47,678 nt of DNA from positions 1 to 47,678 of IMG/VR virus record IMGVR_UViG_3300027896_000068; one strand, written 5' to 3'. The notes under the pieces were generated by a model, which saw only the letters and a program-made list of their open reading frames with translations, did no database searches and had not been told where the DNA came from. Origin of the DNA: a virus. Made by a program: the position numbers and the translations under genes. Positions 15,699 to 27,140 of this stretch are shown in pieces; within the stretch, counting starts at the first letter, position 1; each line of letters begins with the position of its first letter.

Positions 15699-15880
15699 AT
15701 TATCACTCGTATTATCACTCGTATTATCACTCGTATTATCACTCGTATTATCACTTGTATTATCACTGCTATTATCACTCGTATTATCAAATTATGGGAG
15801 CTCCTATTCGATTTGATAATAGTGGTGATAATTAGGGTGATAATTGGGTTGATAATAGTGGTGATAATCGTAGTGATAAT
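15699..15880. repeat. Divergent 12-bp iterons, probable replication origin
   Basis: Eight copies of ATTATCA spaced exactly 12 bp (starts 15699, 15711, 15723, 15735, 15747, 15759, 15771, 15783), mostly followed by CTCGT, face six inverted copies TGATAAT, also exactly 12 bp apart (starts 15814, 15826, 15838, 15850, 15862, 15874). The centre holds palindrome GGAGCTCC. The inverted arm keeps only the heptamer; its 5-bp fillers vary. Regular iterons flanking a palindrome beside a long AT-rich tract are the usual build of a phage or plasmid origin. The likely ligand is the replisome organiser at 32066-33259. A partition or regulatory site is the alternative. Confidence 0.75.
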
Positions 15881-15909
15881 ATGGGGTTAAAGTGACCACT
15901 ATATAAATA

Positions 15910-17816: not shown

Positions 17817-17995
17817 TGGAAAATCTTGAAAGAGCGATTGTCATGATGGAAGCGGCCGGGGACGCTATCCGGGGAAACAACCGGGAAACAGCTCTGGCAT
17901 ACCTGGAAGACGCGAGCGATTGCGTCAAAGATGAACTCTTTAGGTTTGGAGACCGAGAGGAGGAAAGAGCCAAATGCAATTTGTTGACCATTTAA
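17813..17995 (+). CDS. Small helical early protein
   Basis: This 60-residue protein begins MMENLERAIVMMEAAGDAIR, with an AAAGGAGCCAAACGC ribosome site. It looks like a two-helix protein with acidic surface. It overlaps the following AAA ATPase by 22 bp, suggesting coupled expression. Function unknown. Confidence 0.6.
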   Translation: MMENLERAIVMMEAAGDAIRGNNRETALAYLEDASDCVKDELFRFGDREEERAKCNLLTI

Positions 17996-19383
17996 GGGCC
18001 GGCTTTCCTGCCTTGTGGGTACAGACAAGCGAGCCTACCAGGACAATCAAAGAATGGGGAGATGAGGCCGCCAAGATAGGGTACAAAATCTACGGATGGG
18101 ACTGCAACTCCGGCATAAAATCGGGAAGCTTCCATAAGGAAGAGCCGGATCCGCTTAAGGCCGTTAATTTCTTGGCCAGCGCCCAGGATGGAAAGGCTTT
18201 GATGTTCCTCCAAAATTTCCACAAGTACATCAAAGCAATAGATATCATCCAGGAGATTTTAAACCTTGTGGACGTTTACAAGGCCAACGGCCGAACGGTT
18301 GTAATCTTGGCGCCCATAGTAGAGATCCCCGTGGAGCTCGAAAAAGTTTTTACCGTTCTGGAATTCGATCTTCCGGATAAGCCCACCTTAAAAAAAGTGC
18401 TCATGTATATGGCCGAATCCGGAAATCAGACCTTTCCGAATGAAGAGGCAAGCGAAAGTATTCTTGAGGCCGCAAAGGGGTTGACCTGCTTCGAATTCGA
18501 AAACGCTTTAGCCCTCTCCCTCGTCGAGACCAAAGCCTTCACGCCAGCCGCAATCATCGAGCAGAAAACCCAACTGATCAAAAAGAACGCCTCTCTGATG
18601 CTGGAGAACTACGACGAGACCCTTGAGAACTTGGGGGGCCTGGACAACCTTAAAGGCTTTTGCTTGAAGGTAGCCAACAGCCCGCTTTCAAAGGGAGTGC
18701 TTTTGCTTGGGACTCCAGGTACAGGGAAAAGTCATTTTGCCAAAGGTCTGGGGAAAAAGCTCGGAGTGCCAACGGCAGGCCTCGACTTTGGCCGAATGTT
18801 CGGCTCGCTTGTTGGCGAGAGCGAAGGGAGAATCCGGGAAGCTTTGAAAGTTGTCGATGCCTTTTCGCCTTGTGTCCTTTTCATCGACGAGATAGAGAAA
18901 GGCCTTTCGGGAATTCAATCATCCGGACAGACCGATGGAGGCACGGGAAGCCGGGTATTTGGAACATTTTTAACGTGGTTGAATGACCATAAATCCCGCG
19001 TCTTTGTTGTGGCTACCTGCAACGATATCTCGAAGCTACCACCCGAGTTTACCCGGGCTGAAAGATGGGACGCCATTTTCTTTGTGGATCTACCCACGGC
19101 AAAAGAACGCAAGGTGATCCTAGATATGTACCGGAAGCAATTCAAGGTCAAAGGGGAGCCTACATCAACGGAGGGATGGAGCGGGGCAGAGATTAAAAGC
19201 GTGTGCCGTATTGCCGCTATGATGAATACCACGATCCCGGAAGCCGAACGCTTTGTCATGCCCTTGTCAAAATCCATGTGGGAGAAGATACAGGGATTAA
19301 GGGAATGGGCCAAGAGCCGGACCATCCCCGCAAGCCTGGAAGTCGAAGAAACCGGACCGATTATGATCCGGCGAGTGAACTAA
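17974..19383 (+). CDS. AAA+ ATPase, Ycf46-like
   Basis: The 469-residue protein has an N-terminal domain without a complete P-loop (1-220) and a classical AAA domain: GVLLLGTPGTGKSHFAKGLG (Walker A, about 243-262), CVLFIDEIEKGLSG (Walker B, about 300), sensor-1 VVATCND near 350, and arginine finger region PPEFTRAERWD. This layout of a degenerate front half plus active AAA module resembles Ycf46 of cyanobacteria and plastids. DUF1257, DUF2997 and DUF3150 genes downstream strengthen the link, since these families co-occur. The substrate is unknown. An HNH gene follows directly and splits the cluster. Confidence 0.85.
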   Translation: MQFVDHLRAGFPALWVQTSEPTRTIKEWGDEAAKIGYKIYGWDCNSGIKSGSFHKEEPDPLKAVNFLASAQDGKALMFLQNFHKYIKAIDIIQEILNLVDVYKANGRTVVILAPIVEIPVELEKVFTVLEFDLPDKPTLKKVLMYMAESGNQTFPNEEASESILEAAKGLTCFEFENALALSLVETKAFTPAAIIEQKTQLIKKNASLMLENYDETLENLGGLDNLKGFCLKVANSPLSKGVLLLGTPGTGKSHFAKGLGKKLGVPTAGLDFGRMFGSLVGESEGRIREALKVVDAFSPCVLFIDEIEKGLSGIQSSGQTDGGTGSRVFGTFLTWLNDHKSRVFVVATCNDISKLPPEFTRAERWDAIFFVDLPTAKERKVILDMYRKQFKVKGEPTSTEGWSGAEIKSVCRIAAMMNTTIPEAERFVMPLSKSMWEKIQGLREWAKSRTIPASLEVEETGPIMIRRVN

Positions 19384-23366: not shown

Positions 23367-23517
23367 CCACCTTGAAGCTCGATACTGAGCAATCAAAGTA
23401 AACCAAAGCAAGATGATTTGTAGTGTTTTACCGCTTTTTACCCAAGCTACTACACTTTAGTTGGATTGTCAAGCAGAAAATGAATGAATTTGAATTTATT
23501 TTAGAGGGAGGAAAAAA

Positions 23518-24162
23518 ATGAAGGAAGAAAGCGTCGTTCAGCATCAGGATGCAGAGTTTCTGGGTCCGCTCAGAAAAAAGAATTATGCGGAAAAAATGGA
23601 ATATCTCCGTGAGGGGCAAAACATCTGGAGAGAAGGTACGTATAGAATTCTCCAGAGTGCCAGAGCGATTGAGCTGACCGGAGATTACACCACGGGGAAT
23701 TACGAGACGTTCGAGGAATGGTTGAAGAAGGAGACCCCTTTTACTCTCGGAATCTATTATAAGTATCTGAAAATTGCCTGGTCATTCACCAAGGAGTTGA
23801 TCTTCAGGGCCGGGGGGATACCAGCCTTCAGGCAAATAAGATCTTCTCAACTCAAAGACCCTGAGTACCCAAAAGTGGTCGTGGGCAAGATCGAGCACGA
23901 AGAGGAGGTAAATCCTAAACATCCAGATTATCGTCGCGTCCTTAAAGAACTCGCCGAACGGGGCGCGAAAGTACCCAACCCGAACCGCCCAGGGAACAAA
24001 CTCGCTCAACTCGCGCTGAAGCTAAACCAAAAAACAAAACGAATCAGTCAGCTCGAAGCCGAGAACGAATCTCTGAAGACCAAACTTGGCAAATACGAGA
24101 TGACGATCGACGATCTGAAGGCCCAGATCAAGGAGTTTCAAACCGGCAAGAGAATGATGTAG
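23518..24162 (+). CDS. DNA-associated coiled-coil protein, first gene after the switch promoter
   Basis: The 214-residue protein has an N-terminal helical domain (NIWREGTYRILQSARAIELT to FTLGIYYKYLKIAWSF, about 35-90), which looks like the N-terminal part of phage and plasmid proteins that precede a coiled coil, and a clear C-terminal coiled coil (NQKTKRISQLEAENESLKTK, about 168-208). A GAGGGAGGAAAA ribosome site precedes ATG. Its stop TAG lies inside a degenerate first unit of the repeat array at 24157, and the array fills the space to the next gene. It could be an early regulator or a partner of the HhH protein; no family is firmly recognised. Confidence 0.7.
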   Translation: MKEESVVQHQDAEFLGPLRKKNYAEKMEYLREGQNIWREGTYRILQSARAIELTGDYTTGNYETFEEWLKKETPFTLGIYYKYLKIAWSFTKELIFRAGGIPAFRQIRSSQLKDPEYPKVVVGKIEHEEEVNPKHPDYRRVLKELAERGAKVPNPNRPGNKLAQLALKLNQKTKRISQLEAENESLKTKLGKYEMTIDDLKAQIKEFQTGKRMM

Positions 24163-24490
24163 CCAGATCACCTTTGAAAACCAGACTTCCTGTGCGAGGC
24201 ATTCAGGGCCTGAAACCCACAAGGCGAGTGCGAGCCAGCTCGTAGCTGAAAACCAAAGAAGAATTGCGAGCCAGTCCCTCAATGAAAACCACGACCCATG
24301 TGCGAGCCACAAAACCATTGGAAACCAGTCTTGCCGTGCGAGCCATGGAAAGAGTTAAAACCAAAGGATTCGTGCAAGCCACCGACGCGATAAAAACCAA
24401 ATCAGCTATGCGAGCCACTATTGTTTTGAAAACCAATATGTTTTTTGCGAGCCAGTAGTTGTATGAAAACCAATAGATAAATGCGAGGAG
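24157..24490 (+). repeat. Array 1: 36-bp units of two fixed 9-mers alternating with variable 9-mers
   Basis: Nine units of TGAAAACCA-N9-TGCGAGCCA-N9 follow a degenerate TGTAGCCA that contains the upstream stop codon. A-type blocks start at 24175, 24211, 24247, 24283, 24319, 24355, 24391, 24427 and 24464. The period is exactly 36 bp except for one 10-base variable block in unit 8. Fixed blocks vary little: five A blocks are exact and four differ at one base; six B blocks are exact. The variable blocks are all different. The last B block reads TGCGAGGAG and supplies the ribosome site of the HhH gene. The array fills the gene gap completely. Confidence 0.95.
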
Positions 24491-24496
24491 GCAATT

Positions 24497-25504
24497 ATGG
24501 AAGATGAAATCCGCGAAGAAGAAGAATTAGAAAACGGGGAAGAACAGAAGAAAATTGAAATCAAGCTGCCTGGCTATCTGGATGAACTCAAGCCGGATGT
24601 TCGGCAGAATCTTCTTGAACTGTCCATCTTTTGTTCCCGTGAAAGATTCCTAAAACGGGCGAGACAGTCCATGAAGAATTATGTGGCCAGCATCAAGAAT
24701 ATACTTTCCGAAAAGGGCTGGACGGTGGCAAAAATCGAATTCGTGGAAGACCAGATTAATGCCGTCCAAAAGATGATCGATCAGGTCGAGAAAAATATCG
24801 ACCTATGCCTCTTCCGGATTTCGATCTGGACTCAATTTCTCGAAAAGATAAAAGGTCTAGGAGCCTCTACCGCAGGTGGGATTATCTCGACCATCGGTAA
24901 GATTGATAGATTCCCATCTATTTCTGCTTTGCGAAAATACTCCGGTTGGTATCCACAAGATGGTAAGGCGATCAGGAAAATCAGCGGGGCCAAGCTATGC
25001 TATAGCCCCAAGTTGAAGCAATACCTATACCATTTCGTCAGCGGGATCATGAAGGCGAAAGATCCTTATTACTATCCGATGTACCTGGCGGAGAAAGAGA
25101 GGATCTACAAGATTCATCCCGAATACGTGGATAGGAAGGCCACAAAGAAACAAAAGATCGATGGCATCCCAAGCCATGTTCACAAGATGGCCCTGAGAAA
25201 AGTTATTCAGATGTTTCAATCGGATCTCTTCTGCATCTGGAGAGACATCGAAGGTCTTCCCCCTACCCTGCCCTATGCAATAGCCGTTCTCGGGCATGAA
25301 CATTTCAGGAATCCGCTCACAGAGAATCCGTATTACAAAAAGAGCCCGCTGGACTTTGAAAACCAGCCAGCCGCTGCGAGCCACTATCTTCTTGAAAACC
25401 AAAAGAGAGTTGCGAGCCAGAGGTCCGGTGAAACCCAACGCACTGATGCGAACCAAGATCCGGGTGAAACCCCTCGCAGCTGTGTGAGCCAGGAGAATCA
25501 TTAA
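24497..25504 (+). CDS. IS110-type helix-hairpin-helix (Transposase_20-like) protein without DEDD domain
   Basis: The 335-residue protein begins with an acidic stretch. A helical region with coiled-coil character (about 45-115) follows, then IKGLGASTAGGIISTIGKID with RFPSISALRKYSGW (about 118-152), the HhH core of the IS110/IS116/IS902 C-terminal domain. Then come KLCYSPKLKQYLYHF, a His/Lys-rich segment (HVHKMALRKVIQMF, about 230-245) and PYAIAVLGHEHF. IS110 transposases also carry an N-terminal RuvC-like DEDD nuclease domain; none is present here, so transposition by itself is unlikely. The last 48 codons are array 2 units, giving ENQ-x9-type repeats. Arrays sit on both sides. Confidence 0.8.
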   Translation: MEDEIREEEELENGEEQKKIEIKLPGYLDELKPDVRQNLLELSIFCSRERFLKRARQSMKNYVASIKNILSEKGWTVAKIEFVEDQINAVQKMIDQVEKNIDLCLFRISIWTQFLEKIKGLGASTAGGIISTIGKIDRFPSISALRKYSGWYPQDGKAIRKISGAKLCYSPKLKQYLYHFVSGIMKAKDPYYYPMYLAEKERIYKIHPEYVDRKATKKQKIDGIPSHVHKMALRKVIQMFQSDLFCIWRDIEGLPPTLPYAIAVLGHEHFRNPLTENPYYKKSPLDFENQPAAASHYLLENQKRVASQRSGETQRTDANQDPGETPRSCVSQENH

Positions 25505-25671
25505 AACCAAATCGGAAATGCGAGCCAGGGTTGGCGTGAAAACCAAAAAGCATCTGCGAGCCATCCATCAGATGAAACCCATCAGGTTGATGCGAGCCAG
25601 TATTCTATTGAAACCCAAGAAGTAATTGCGAGCCAAAAAGAATATGAAACCCAATATAAGAATGCGAATTC
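25357..25671 (+). repeat. Array 2: 36-bp dual-motif array, partly coding
   Basis: Nine units with A blocks at 25357, 25393, 25429, 25465, 25501, 25537, 25573, 25609 and 25645 and B blocks 18 bp later. Every fixed and variable block is exactly 9 bp. Here A is TGAAAACCA or TGAAACCCA; six of nine B blocks are exact TGCGAGCCA. The first four units code the end of the HhH protein as E-N/T-Q...A-S/N-Q/H repeats until the fifth A block, TTAAAACCA, gives the TAA stop. After that stop the same frame stays open to a TAA at 25685-25687, just before the next gene. Confidence 0.95.
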
Positions 25672-25687
25672 AAGAAAGGCAAACTAA

Positions 25688-26017
25688 ATGAAAAAATTAT
25701 TTCTACTTTTTTTTCTGGCGCTGGCGTTGATGATGGCGGGATGTACTAAGGTTCCTAACCCCGAGATCATATATCGAGACAAGATCATTCTCCAAGATAA
25801 GATCGTATATCGAGATAGATGCTCAAGCGAAGAAAAGAGTTACCAATTCAGGTGTGGGCAAGCGTTTCAATATGGTCGCATTCAGGCGACTCTCCACCAT
25901 AATAAGTGCAATCAATTAACGGCAACGGGGAAAATATGTGATTTTGAAAATCGAGAACAAAAAGAAAATTGTTTTAGACAATGCGAAGAGGGTTTTTTGG
26001 ACCAAAGTAGGAATTAA
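25688..26017 (+). CDS. Small phage lipoprotein
   Basis: This 109-residue protein has a signal peptide with lipobox LMMAGC (MKKLFLLFFLALALMMAGCT), so it is probably lipidated. The mature part has an I-I-Y-R-D-K-I-I-L-Q-D-K-I-V-Y-R-D repeat and four further Cys (C-x6-C...C...C) that could pair as disulphides. AAAGG precedes ATG, 16 bp after the end of array 2. It might block superinfection or modify the envelope; no specific family recognised. Confidence 0.7.
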   Translation: MKKLFLLFFLALALMMAGCTKVPNPEIIYRDKIILQDKIVYRDRCSSEEKSYQFRCGQAFQYGRIQATLHHNKCNQLTATGKICDFENREQKENCFRQCEEGFLDQSRN

Positions 26018-26054
26018 CTCCCCCCAACCAAGGGGAAATAAAAAAGGAGAAAAT

Positions 26055-26258
26055 ATGACAAAAGAAGCAACGTGTTGTGAGGAAAAGCTGCAAGAACTTC
26101 TGAATGTATGCGATCTGATGGCCAAAGTTTACAAAGATTCCTCGAACGATTATGCAGAACTTGGCGAGATGGACTCATCGAGATTATTCCACGGGATGAG
26201 CCTTGCACATGCAGTCATGGCCACCAAGATCAGGAAATTATTTCCAGAATTGAAATAG
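26055..26258 (+). CDS. Small helical early protein
   Basis: This 67-residue protein begins MTKEATCCEEKLQELLNVCD, with AAAAAGGAGAAAAT directly in front. An alternative longer frame from 25938 lies inside the previous gene and is rejected. Helical throughout, with paired Cys near the start. Function unknown. Confidence 0.65.
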   Translation: MTKEATCCEEKLQELLNVCDLMAKVYKDSSNDYAELGEMDSSRLFHGMSLAHAVMATKIRKLFPELK

Positions 26259-26291
26259 TGCTCGGCTGCCTTACCCCCGGGTAGCACCACA

Positions 26292-26317
26292 TCGCGTCCT
26301 GAGAGATCGGGGCGCGA
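26292..26317 (+). promoter_or_regulatory. Intergenic hairpin
   Basis: TCGCGTCCT/GGGGCGCGA form a 9-bp stem with two G-U pairs and an 8-base loop in the 77-bp gap before the 26336 gene. No U run follows, so it is more likely an mRNA stability or processing element. Confidence 0.4.
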
Positions 26318-26534: not shown

Positions 26535-27140
26535 ATGTTTTCGACTGACCGAATAGCGAAAGGGCTTTACTGGGATCGACTTTGGAGATTGGTGGATGGC
26601 TGCACGCCGTGTTCTCCTGGATGTCAACATGATTGGGCGGCTCGGGAAGCGAAATTACGCACGTATGGAGCAAAAGACCTTCTTGGTCCAGACGGAATGT
26701 GGAATGGTAATATTCGCGTTCGCCCTGATCATCTTGATCTTCCCCTTCACACGAAAAAGCCCACATCCTGGCTGATTCTGAATGATCTTTTCCATGAGGA
26801 TGTACCGAATGAATTTATTTTGAAGACCTGGGAAGCAATGTTTAACCAAGAAAGACATGTTTTTTTGGTTCTTACGAAAAGAATTGAAAAAATGAACAAG
26901 TGGTGTTCGGATCATTCAATTATGCCAAGGGGACATATTTGGCCCGGCGTAACCGTATGCAATCAGCAAGAGGCTGATGAGAAAATTCCGTTATTGTTGC
27001 AGATCCCGGCGAAGGTGAGATGGGTATCAATAGAACCCATGCTCGGACCCATTAACTTAACTGGAAATGATAAAGGGCAATTTTGCAAAAAAGCCGCTGG
27101 CCGTCTTCTCGATGGCCGGGAATGGAATAAATTTCCGTAG
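26535..27140 (+). CDS. DUF5131 (phage Gp37/Gp68) family protein, shortened
   Basis: The 201-residue protein keeps the family's front part: WDRLWRLVDGCTPCSPGCQ (about 13-31), then the LTKRIEKMNKW and HIWPGVTVCNQQEADEKIPL segments and VRWVSIEPMLGPINL. Full-length relatives continue with a glycine-rich GGESGPxARP segment before the GRLLDGREW ending. Here LGPINL is followed after about 17 residues by KKAAGRLLDGREWNKFP, so roughly 60-80 residues are missing. The usual Cys pattern SPGCxxCYA is also altered (PGCQHDWA). The family resembles radical-SAM proteins; activity of this version is doubtful. Confidence 0.8.
   Translation: MFSTDRIAKGLYWDRLWRLVDGCTPCSPGCQHDWAAREAKLRTYGAKDLLGPDGMWNGNIRVRPDHLDLPLHTKKPTSWLILNDLFHEDVPNEFILKTWEAMFNQERHVFLVLTKRIEKMNKWCSDHSIMPRGHIWPGVTVCNQQEADEKIPLLLQIPAKVRWVSIEPMLGPINLTGNDKGQFCKKAAGRLLDGREWNKFP

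What the first reader, a model, noticed from the sequence alone, without database searches (positions are those of the whole stretch)
25357..25687. Array 2 is in frame, but its conservation follows nucleotides rather than codons
36 bp equals 12 codons, so units read E-N/T-Q-x3-A-S-Q/H-x3. The HhH protein ends at a TAA created by one base in the fifth A block (TTAAAACCA), yet the frame then stays open for 60 more codons. The conserved 9-mers include the third base of the preceding codon and never use synonymous choices: the base before GAA is T in all A blocks that keep GAA, and the Ala-Ser codons are almost always GCG AGC. Array 1, with the same motifs, is interrupted in the equivalent frame by a TAA and a 1-base insertion. 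This argues for selection on DNA or RNA, with translation either tolerated or a second use.
Basis: seen in the sequence. Interest (0 to 1): 0.75.

Follow-up and report, generated by a model that had tools for sequence, protein, structure and literature searches.

The report
Phage guide-RNA array overlapping its gene
The repeats are a TIGR array, a row of short guide-RNA units of a recently described phage system (TIGR-Tas), and here the gene for the guide-binding protein happens to run into the array, so part of the guide array is also read as protein.

Summary
Nine TGAAAMCCA-type and eight TGCGAGCCA-type blocks alternate every 18 bp, in frame with the 335-aa ORF. The ORF stops at a TAA made by one base in the fifth A block, and the frame then stays open for 60 codons.

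The array and ORF are a TIGR-TasA system. The protein passes the curated TIGR-Tas model and its fold matches TasR and TasH. Blocks carry box D (TG) and box C (CCA); loop, edge and 9-nt spacers fit the published 36-nt unit. Array 1, upstream, is of the same kind; together they hold 18 guide units.

The same blocks occur beside diverged TasA genes, in all three frames, mostly after the tas stop. The open frame itself is weak evidence: the consensus blocks cannot form a stop in this frame, and 60 open codons have a chance probability near 0.3. ORF-into-array overlap is uncommon but recurrent, with different frames and peptides.

No target was found. A possible feedback: guide processing cuts the tasA mRNA upstream of its stop. 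New member of a known kind; the overlap was not found described in what I could read of the founding paper.

The parts
23518..24162 (+). upstream ORF (214 aa, coiled-coil matches only, unknown function); its stop TAG overlaps the first truncated edge of array 1
24161..24487 (+). TIGR array 1: 5'-truncated edge AGCCA, 9 loop blocks, 8 full edge blocks, 3'-truncated edge TGCGAG; 9 guide units; one 10-nt spacer at 24436-24445
24486..24491 (+). AGGAGG, probable Shine-Dalgarno of tasA, overlapping the terminal edge of array 1
   Evidence: sequence
24497..25504 (+). tasA ORF (335 aa): solo Nop-type RNA-binding protein; conserved domain ends about residue 273; about the last 50 residues are array-coded
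25342..25667 (+). TIGR array 2: 5'-truncated edge GAGCC (25342-25346), body 25348-25662 (9 loop, 8 edge blocks, 9-nt spacers), 3'-truncated edge TGCGA (25663-25667); 9 guide units, the first ones inside the tasA ORF
25502..25504 (+). TAA stop of the tasA ORF, made by a G to T difference from consensus in box D of the fifth loop block (TTAAAACCA)
25685..25687 (+). next in-frame stop TAA, abutting the ATG of the next gene
25688..26017 (+). downstream ORF (109 aa; weak match to the Cor superinfection exclusion family)

Best explanation
Array 2 is a TIGR guide-RNA array of a phage TIGR-TasA system. TGCGAGCCA is the edge repeat and TGAAAMCCA the loop repeat; TG is box D and CCA box C, the contacts for the Tas dimer. 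The two 9-nt spacers of each unit would pair with opposite strands of a target. Inferred from the published systems: the array is transcribed (probably with tasA), cut in the edges into 36-nt tigRNAs, and TasA carries them to DNA without cutting it, since it has no nuclease domain. The conserved 9-mers are held by RNA function. The tasA ORF simply lacks a stop before the array, so it reads about four units until a box D change happens to make a stop; the extra C-terminal residues are tolerated.
For: The protein passes the curated TIGR_Tas model NF052498 (103.8 bits, cut-off 100). Sequence matches are TasR 9mty (2e-20) and TasH 21kl (1e-6). Foldseek's best 11 hits are TasR and TasH chains, then IS621/ISCro4. 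The published array anatomy is met: two alternating 9-nt repeats, 9-nt spacers, truncated first and last edges, box C/D, A-rich loop, position next to tas. Of 90 sources (89 loci fetched by this repeat pair, plus the window), 55 carry a TasA ORF, the window included. 57 of 111 distinct Tas domain sequences have a downstream array in the strict scan, and 4 of these 57 have two or more full blocks inside the ORF. Frames differ between loci.
Against: No RNA data: expression and processing are inferred from other TIGR systems. No terminator-like site was seen after array 2 on the + strand, whereas published arrays typically end with one. Three loops (two in array 1, one in array 2) have a changed box D, so some units may be dead. 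The closest TasA found is only 41% identical over 169 aa, so the fate of this TAA in near kin could not be checked. The NCBIfam score is only just above the cut-off. No target was found.
Confidence: 0.93

Rival explanations
1. The array is chiefly a protein repeat: a 12-residue C-terminal repeat (E-N/T-Q-x3-A-S-Q/H-x3) of a nucleic-acid-binding protein, and the nucleotide regularity is a by-product of tandem duplication.
For: 36 bp is 12 codons, the frame is open, and about 50 array residues are read before the stop. L013 and L035 read the same kind of peptide.
Against: Array 1 has the same blocks upstream of the gene and is not open in that frame. In most relatives the array lies after the tas stop and in any frame. 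L125 and L166 tails read in other frames give other peptides. Mean pLDDT over the last blocks of ten residues is 47-71. Spacers differ from unit to unit while blocks do not.
Confidence: 0.03
2. Both uses are selected: the array gives guides and the translated tail gives TasA an adaptive C terminus.
For: The frame stays open up to the fifth loop and again after it; a few other lineages also read into arrays.
Against: Openness is expected by chance (about 0.4 for 4 units, 0.3 for 5). Tails are not conserved in sequence, length or frame. The in-ORF blocks have, if anything, more changes (3 of 8) than the blocks after the stop (0 of 8).
Confidence: 0.06
3. The repeats are DNA-level binding sites (operators, iterons or a centromere) and not guides.
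For: 18-bp spacing and two alternating motifs are compatible with protein sites; some TasA loci are reported with ParB-like genes (PMC12045711, passage).
Against: Agreement with TIGR arrays, whose RNA products have been shown (PMC12045711, passage), together with a Tas protein; fully variable 9-nt spacers.
Confidence: 0.03
4. An IS110-type element with a bridge RNA.
For: Pfam Transposase_20 match and a match to the IS110 NCBIfam model (30.7 bits).
Against: The IS110 cut-off is 140 bits; no N-terminal DEDD domain in Pfam; an array of units rather than one bridge RNA; TasR/TasH fit better in fold.
Confidence: 0.01

Closest known systems
TIGR-TasA systems (e.g. Flavonifractor plautii FpTIGR; Faure et al. 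2025, PMC12045711)
   Same: Solo Nop protein, arrays beside the gene, alternating edge and loop repeats, 9-nt spacers, 36-nt unit, truncated end repeats, found in tailed phages.
   Different: Here the tasA ORF runs through about four units of array 2; the terminal edge of array 1 overlaps the tasA Shine-Dalgarno; no terminator seen after array 2.
TIGR-TasR (PDB 9mty) and TIGR-TasH (PDB 21kl, 9w04)
   Same: Nop domain by sequence and fold; TG and CCA boxes as described for TasR arrays.
   Different: No RuvC or HNH domain in this protein.
IS110/IS621 bridge-RNA transposases
   Same: Shared RNA-binding domain (Transposase_20).
   Different: No DEDD nuclease match, below the IS110 model cut-off, array instead of a single bridge RNA.
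CRISPR arrays
   Same: Repeats with variable spacers beside an effector gene.
   Different: Two short repeats, 9-nt spacers, Tas and not Cas protein.

Membership tests
TIGR-Tas | Nop-domain Tas protein next to the array | tested here: met
   NF052498 103.8 bits vs cut-off 100; TasR/TasH top fold hits
TIGR-Tas | two alternating 8-12-nt repeats with about 9-nt spacers | tested here: met
   9-nt blocks, 9-nt spacers except one of 10 nt in array 1; definition
TIGR-Tas | box D (UG) and box C (CCA) in both repeats, A-rich loop, extra pair in edge | tested here: met
   TG-AAAM-CCA and TG-CGAG-CCA; definition from PMC12045711 section 8, given there for TasR arrays
TIGR-Tas | 5'-truncated first edge and 3'-truncated last edge | tested here: met
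   AGCCA and TGCGAG in array 1, GAGCC and TGCGA in array 2
TIGR-Tas | rho-independent terminator after the array (typical, not defining) | tested here: not met
   no + strand terminator-like site in 23400-26300
TIGR-Tas | array processed to 36-nt tigRNAs bound by Tas | not testable with these tools
   needs RNA sequencing
TIGR-Tas | spacers A and B pair with opposite strands of a target | tested here: inconclusive
   no clear excess of A.rc(B) sites over controls; database scans of 2 of 18 units uninformative
TasA subtype | no RuvC or HNH nuclease domain | tested here: met
   only Transposase_20 passes its Pfam cut-off; only about 32 residues precede the long coiled-coil helices
IS110 transposase | DEDD domain plus Transposase_20 | tested here: not met
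   IS110 model 30.7 bits vs cut-off 140; no DEDD match in Pfam

The most novel reading that the evidence does not exclude
Because guide units lie inside the tasA ORF, each processing cut in the edges at 25375, 25411, 25447 or 25483 would leave a tasA mRNA without a stop codon. TasA made from it would be tagged and degraded by the host's tmRNA system. Guide production would then limit TasA, a built-in negative feedback, and ribosomes on the ORF would in turn shield the first guides. The terminal edge of array 1, fused to the tasA Shine-Dalgarno, could add translational autorepression when TasA binds it.
Probability: 0.12. Interest if true: 0.6.

Novelty: new member of a known kind. Interest (0 to 1): 0.38.

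Why it matters
It identifies an unexplained phage repeat as a TIGR-TasA locus, in what looks like the early operon next to a CI-like repressor. It also shows that a TIGR array can share nucleotides with the coding sequence of its own effector. The biological role of TasA and the maturation of tigRNAs are open questions in the founding paper; loci where guide and ORF overlap, or where an array edge abuts the tas ribosome site, give a genetic handle on how guide processing and Tas synthesis are coupled.

Tried and rejected
Single-protein scans of viral contigs with TasA and with the upstream ORF found no relative, so the near-kin test of the TAA could not be done. Self-targets: 779 distinct spacer pairs against 0.83 Mb of masked sequence gave 10 sites with at most 1 mismatch in the expected arrangement against 3, 4 and 5 in three control arrangements, and 3 own-locus sites with at most 2 mismatches against 1, 2 and 2. 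The 10 sites include the same unit hitting one locus twice or hitting duplicate contigs, and I do not claim the excess. The arrangement A.rc(B) is my own derivation from the paper's statement of 8-nt 3' overhangs and the C-5 rule. Targets in viral contigs: 2 of 18 window units were scanned. One gave 33 matches, of which 14 are one homologous gene family and the other 19 fall into 14 groups by blastp; the other gave 5. I take these for chance matches, but no control scan was run. Array growth by unit duplication: within-array units are a little more alike than units of different arrays, but not more at lag 1 than at other lags, so local composition may explain most of it. Rfam: no match in 23400-26300. 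PADLOC: no match for TasA. TasA in the plasmid collection: none; in phages: 1 record, Microcystis phage Mvi-JY20.

Biases: loci L004-L092 were chosen by the window's own repeat pair, L093-L172 by a TasA profile. Rows with an identical Tas domain were dropped before counting (111 distinct kept of 135 ORFs). The strict array scan looks for TGN4CCA and misses other box types. The relaxed scan admits AG boxes and lists 73 loci, of which 5 have the ORF running at least 54 nt past the first spacer start (window, L166, L125, L021, L013), plus L035, whose first sub-array lies in the ORF. Some chains in the relaxed scan may be spurious.

Full report
What is there. The window is a 47,678-base virus record. 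Nine TGAAAMCCA-type and eight TGCGAGCCA-type blocks alternate at 18-bp steps from 25357 to 25653, with 9-nt variable spacers. The same pair forms array 1 upstream, at 24161-24487. The paired pattern TGN4CCA-N9-TGN4CCA is found 21 times, all within these arrays, against 0.09 expected.

What it is. The 335-aa ORF matches Transposase_20 in Pfam (2.7e-5), TasR 9mty and TasH 21kl by sequence, and the NCBIfam TIGR-Tas model above its cut-off. A structure predicted from 24 aligned sequences (mean pLDDT 82) finds TasR and TasH chains as its first 11 hits and IS621/ISCro4 transposases next. Entry 9MTY is the TasR structure of Faure et al. 2025 (PMC12045711, passage). Of that paper I saw the abstract and outline, sections 4, 6, 7, 8 and 10 and passages. 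Its array anatomy is edge, spacer A, loop, spacer B, with box D UG and box C CCA, an A-rich loop, truncated first and last edges, and 36-nt processed RNAs. The window fits: loop TG-AAAM-CCA, edge TG-CGAG-CCA. The protein has no nuclease domain that Pfam finds, so it is of the TasA type.

Why the conservation follows nucleotides. The exact pair pattern fetched 66 stretches from viral contigs and 23 from prokaryote contigs. With the window, 55 of these 90 sources carry a TasA ORF. The Tas proteins compared are about 19-41% identical to the window's, yet the 9-mers are shared. In 622 loop and 591 edge blocks from 76 distinct arrays of relatives, the TG, CCA and CGAG bases are mostly kept and position 6 of the loop is the freest site. 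That position is a second codon position in the window's frame, so the freest site is non-synonymous, as RNA-level constraint predicts. Wobble-equivalent sites deviate in 49 of 1827 against 315 of 3654 other sites in loops, and in 82 of 1737 against 120 of 3474 in edges. The edge figures alone would not argue for either view. Spacers are 9 nt in 1312 of 1358 steps (duplicates and the window not removed from this count).

Why translation looks incidental. In this frame the consensus blocks hold no stop and only two codons per spacer can be one. Simulated arrays stay open for 5 units with probability 0.29-0.32 and for 9 units with 0.11-0.13. Among 111 distinct Tas domains, 57 have a downstream array in the strict scan; the first array is mainly in frame 0, 1 or 2 in 21, 24 and 12 of these. 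In many, the first truncated edge overlaps or closely follows the stop codon (TAGCCA, TAAGCCA, TGAGCCA). Two or more full blocks lie inside the ORF in 4 of 57 (window, L035, L021, L013), and one block in 4 more. The relaxed scan adds L125 and L166. These tails are read in different frames and give different peptides. The window's tail has block-mean pLDDT of about 47-71. In-ORF blocks deviate from consensus in 3 of 8 and blocks after the stop in 0 of 8; the stop block deviates too. All three in-ORF changes are non-synonymous, but the number is too small for a test. TT in box D is also found in 10 of 622 loops of relatives and once in array 1, so the TAA-forming difference is an ordinary repeat variant.

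How it likely works. Shown here: anatomy, protein family and fold, recurrence. Inferred from the published systems: transcription, processing in edges, binding of 36-nt guides, and RNA-guided DNA binding without cutting. The locus lies directly after a CI-like S24 repressor on the other strand, and before RecE-like and replication genes on the same strand, which suggests an early operon. Upstream arrays commonly end in a truncated edge close to the tas ribosome site: in 28 of 31 loci with an upstream array (relaxed scan) a Shine-Dalgarno-like site with an in-frame start was found, starting 2 to 46 nt after the start of the last edge as parsed. In the window it starts 4 nt after the edge begins, so they overlap. 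This makes autoregulation thinkable; it is not shown.

Targets. No clear self-target signal was found, and the two units scanned in viral contigs gave only what I take for chance matches. The target remains unknown.

Novelty. The system is a new member of a known kind. The words 'stop codon', 'Shine-Dalgarno' and 'open reading frame' have no occurrence in the main text of PMC12045711, and 'overlap' occurs once, in section 7, about spacers; supplements were not available to me. Two library searches listed no other primary TIGR paper; the review PMC12385481 was seen only in passages and has no occurrence of 'TasA'. So the ORF-array overlap seems undescribed in what I could search, but it is a variation of detail.

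Noticed in passing
15699-15885: About eight 12-bp copies of ATTATCACTCGT followed by about seven TGATAAT copies in the opposite orientation; looks like an operator, iteron or centromere cluster.
   Followed up: no
24482-24499: The last, truncated edge of array 1 (TGCGAG) overlaps the AGGAGG ribosome site of tasA; upstream arrays of relatives also end shortly before the tas start.
   Followed up: partly
24160-24165: The stop codon of the upstream ORF overlaps the first truncated edge of array 1 (TAGCCA); relatives show the same at the tas stop before downstream arrays.
   Followed up: partly
24355, 24391 and 25501: Three loop blocks have a changed box D (TT, TA, TT), so these guide units may be inactive.
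   Followed up: no
25411-25500: Guide units 3 and 4 of array 2 look like a diverged duplicate with small shifts in the spacers.
   Followed up: no
L041:743-850: Three consecutive identical guide units, a sign that arrays can grow by unit duplication.
   Followed up: partly
L103, L123, L124, L139, L158: TasA arrays with AG in place of TG in box D of both edge and loop, i.e. covarying boxes.
   Followed up: no
25688-26017: Gene directly after array 2 matches the Cor superinfection exclusion family weakly (E 2e-4).
   Followed up: no
26535-27140: DUF5131 protein; also matches two PADLOC candidate-defence models, PDC-M41B and PDC-M30B.
   Followed up: no
17974-19383: 469-aa AAA ATPase with CDC48/FtsH-type matches below their cut-offs.
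   Followed up: no
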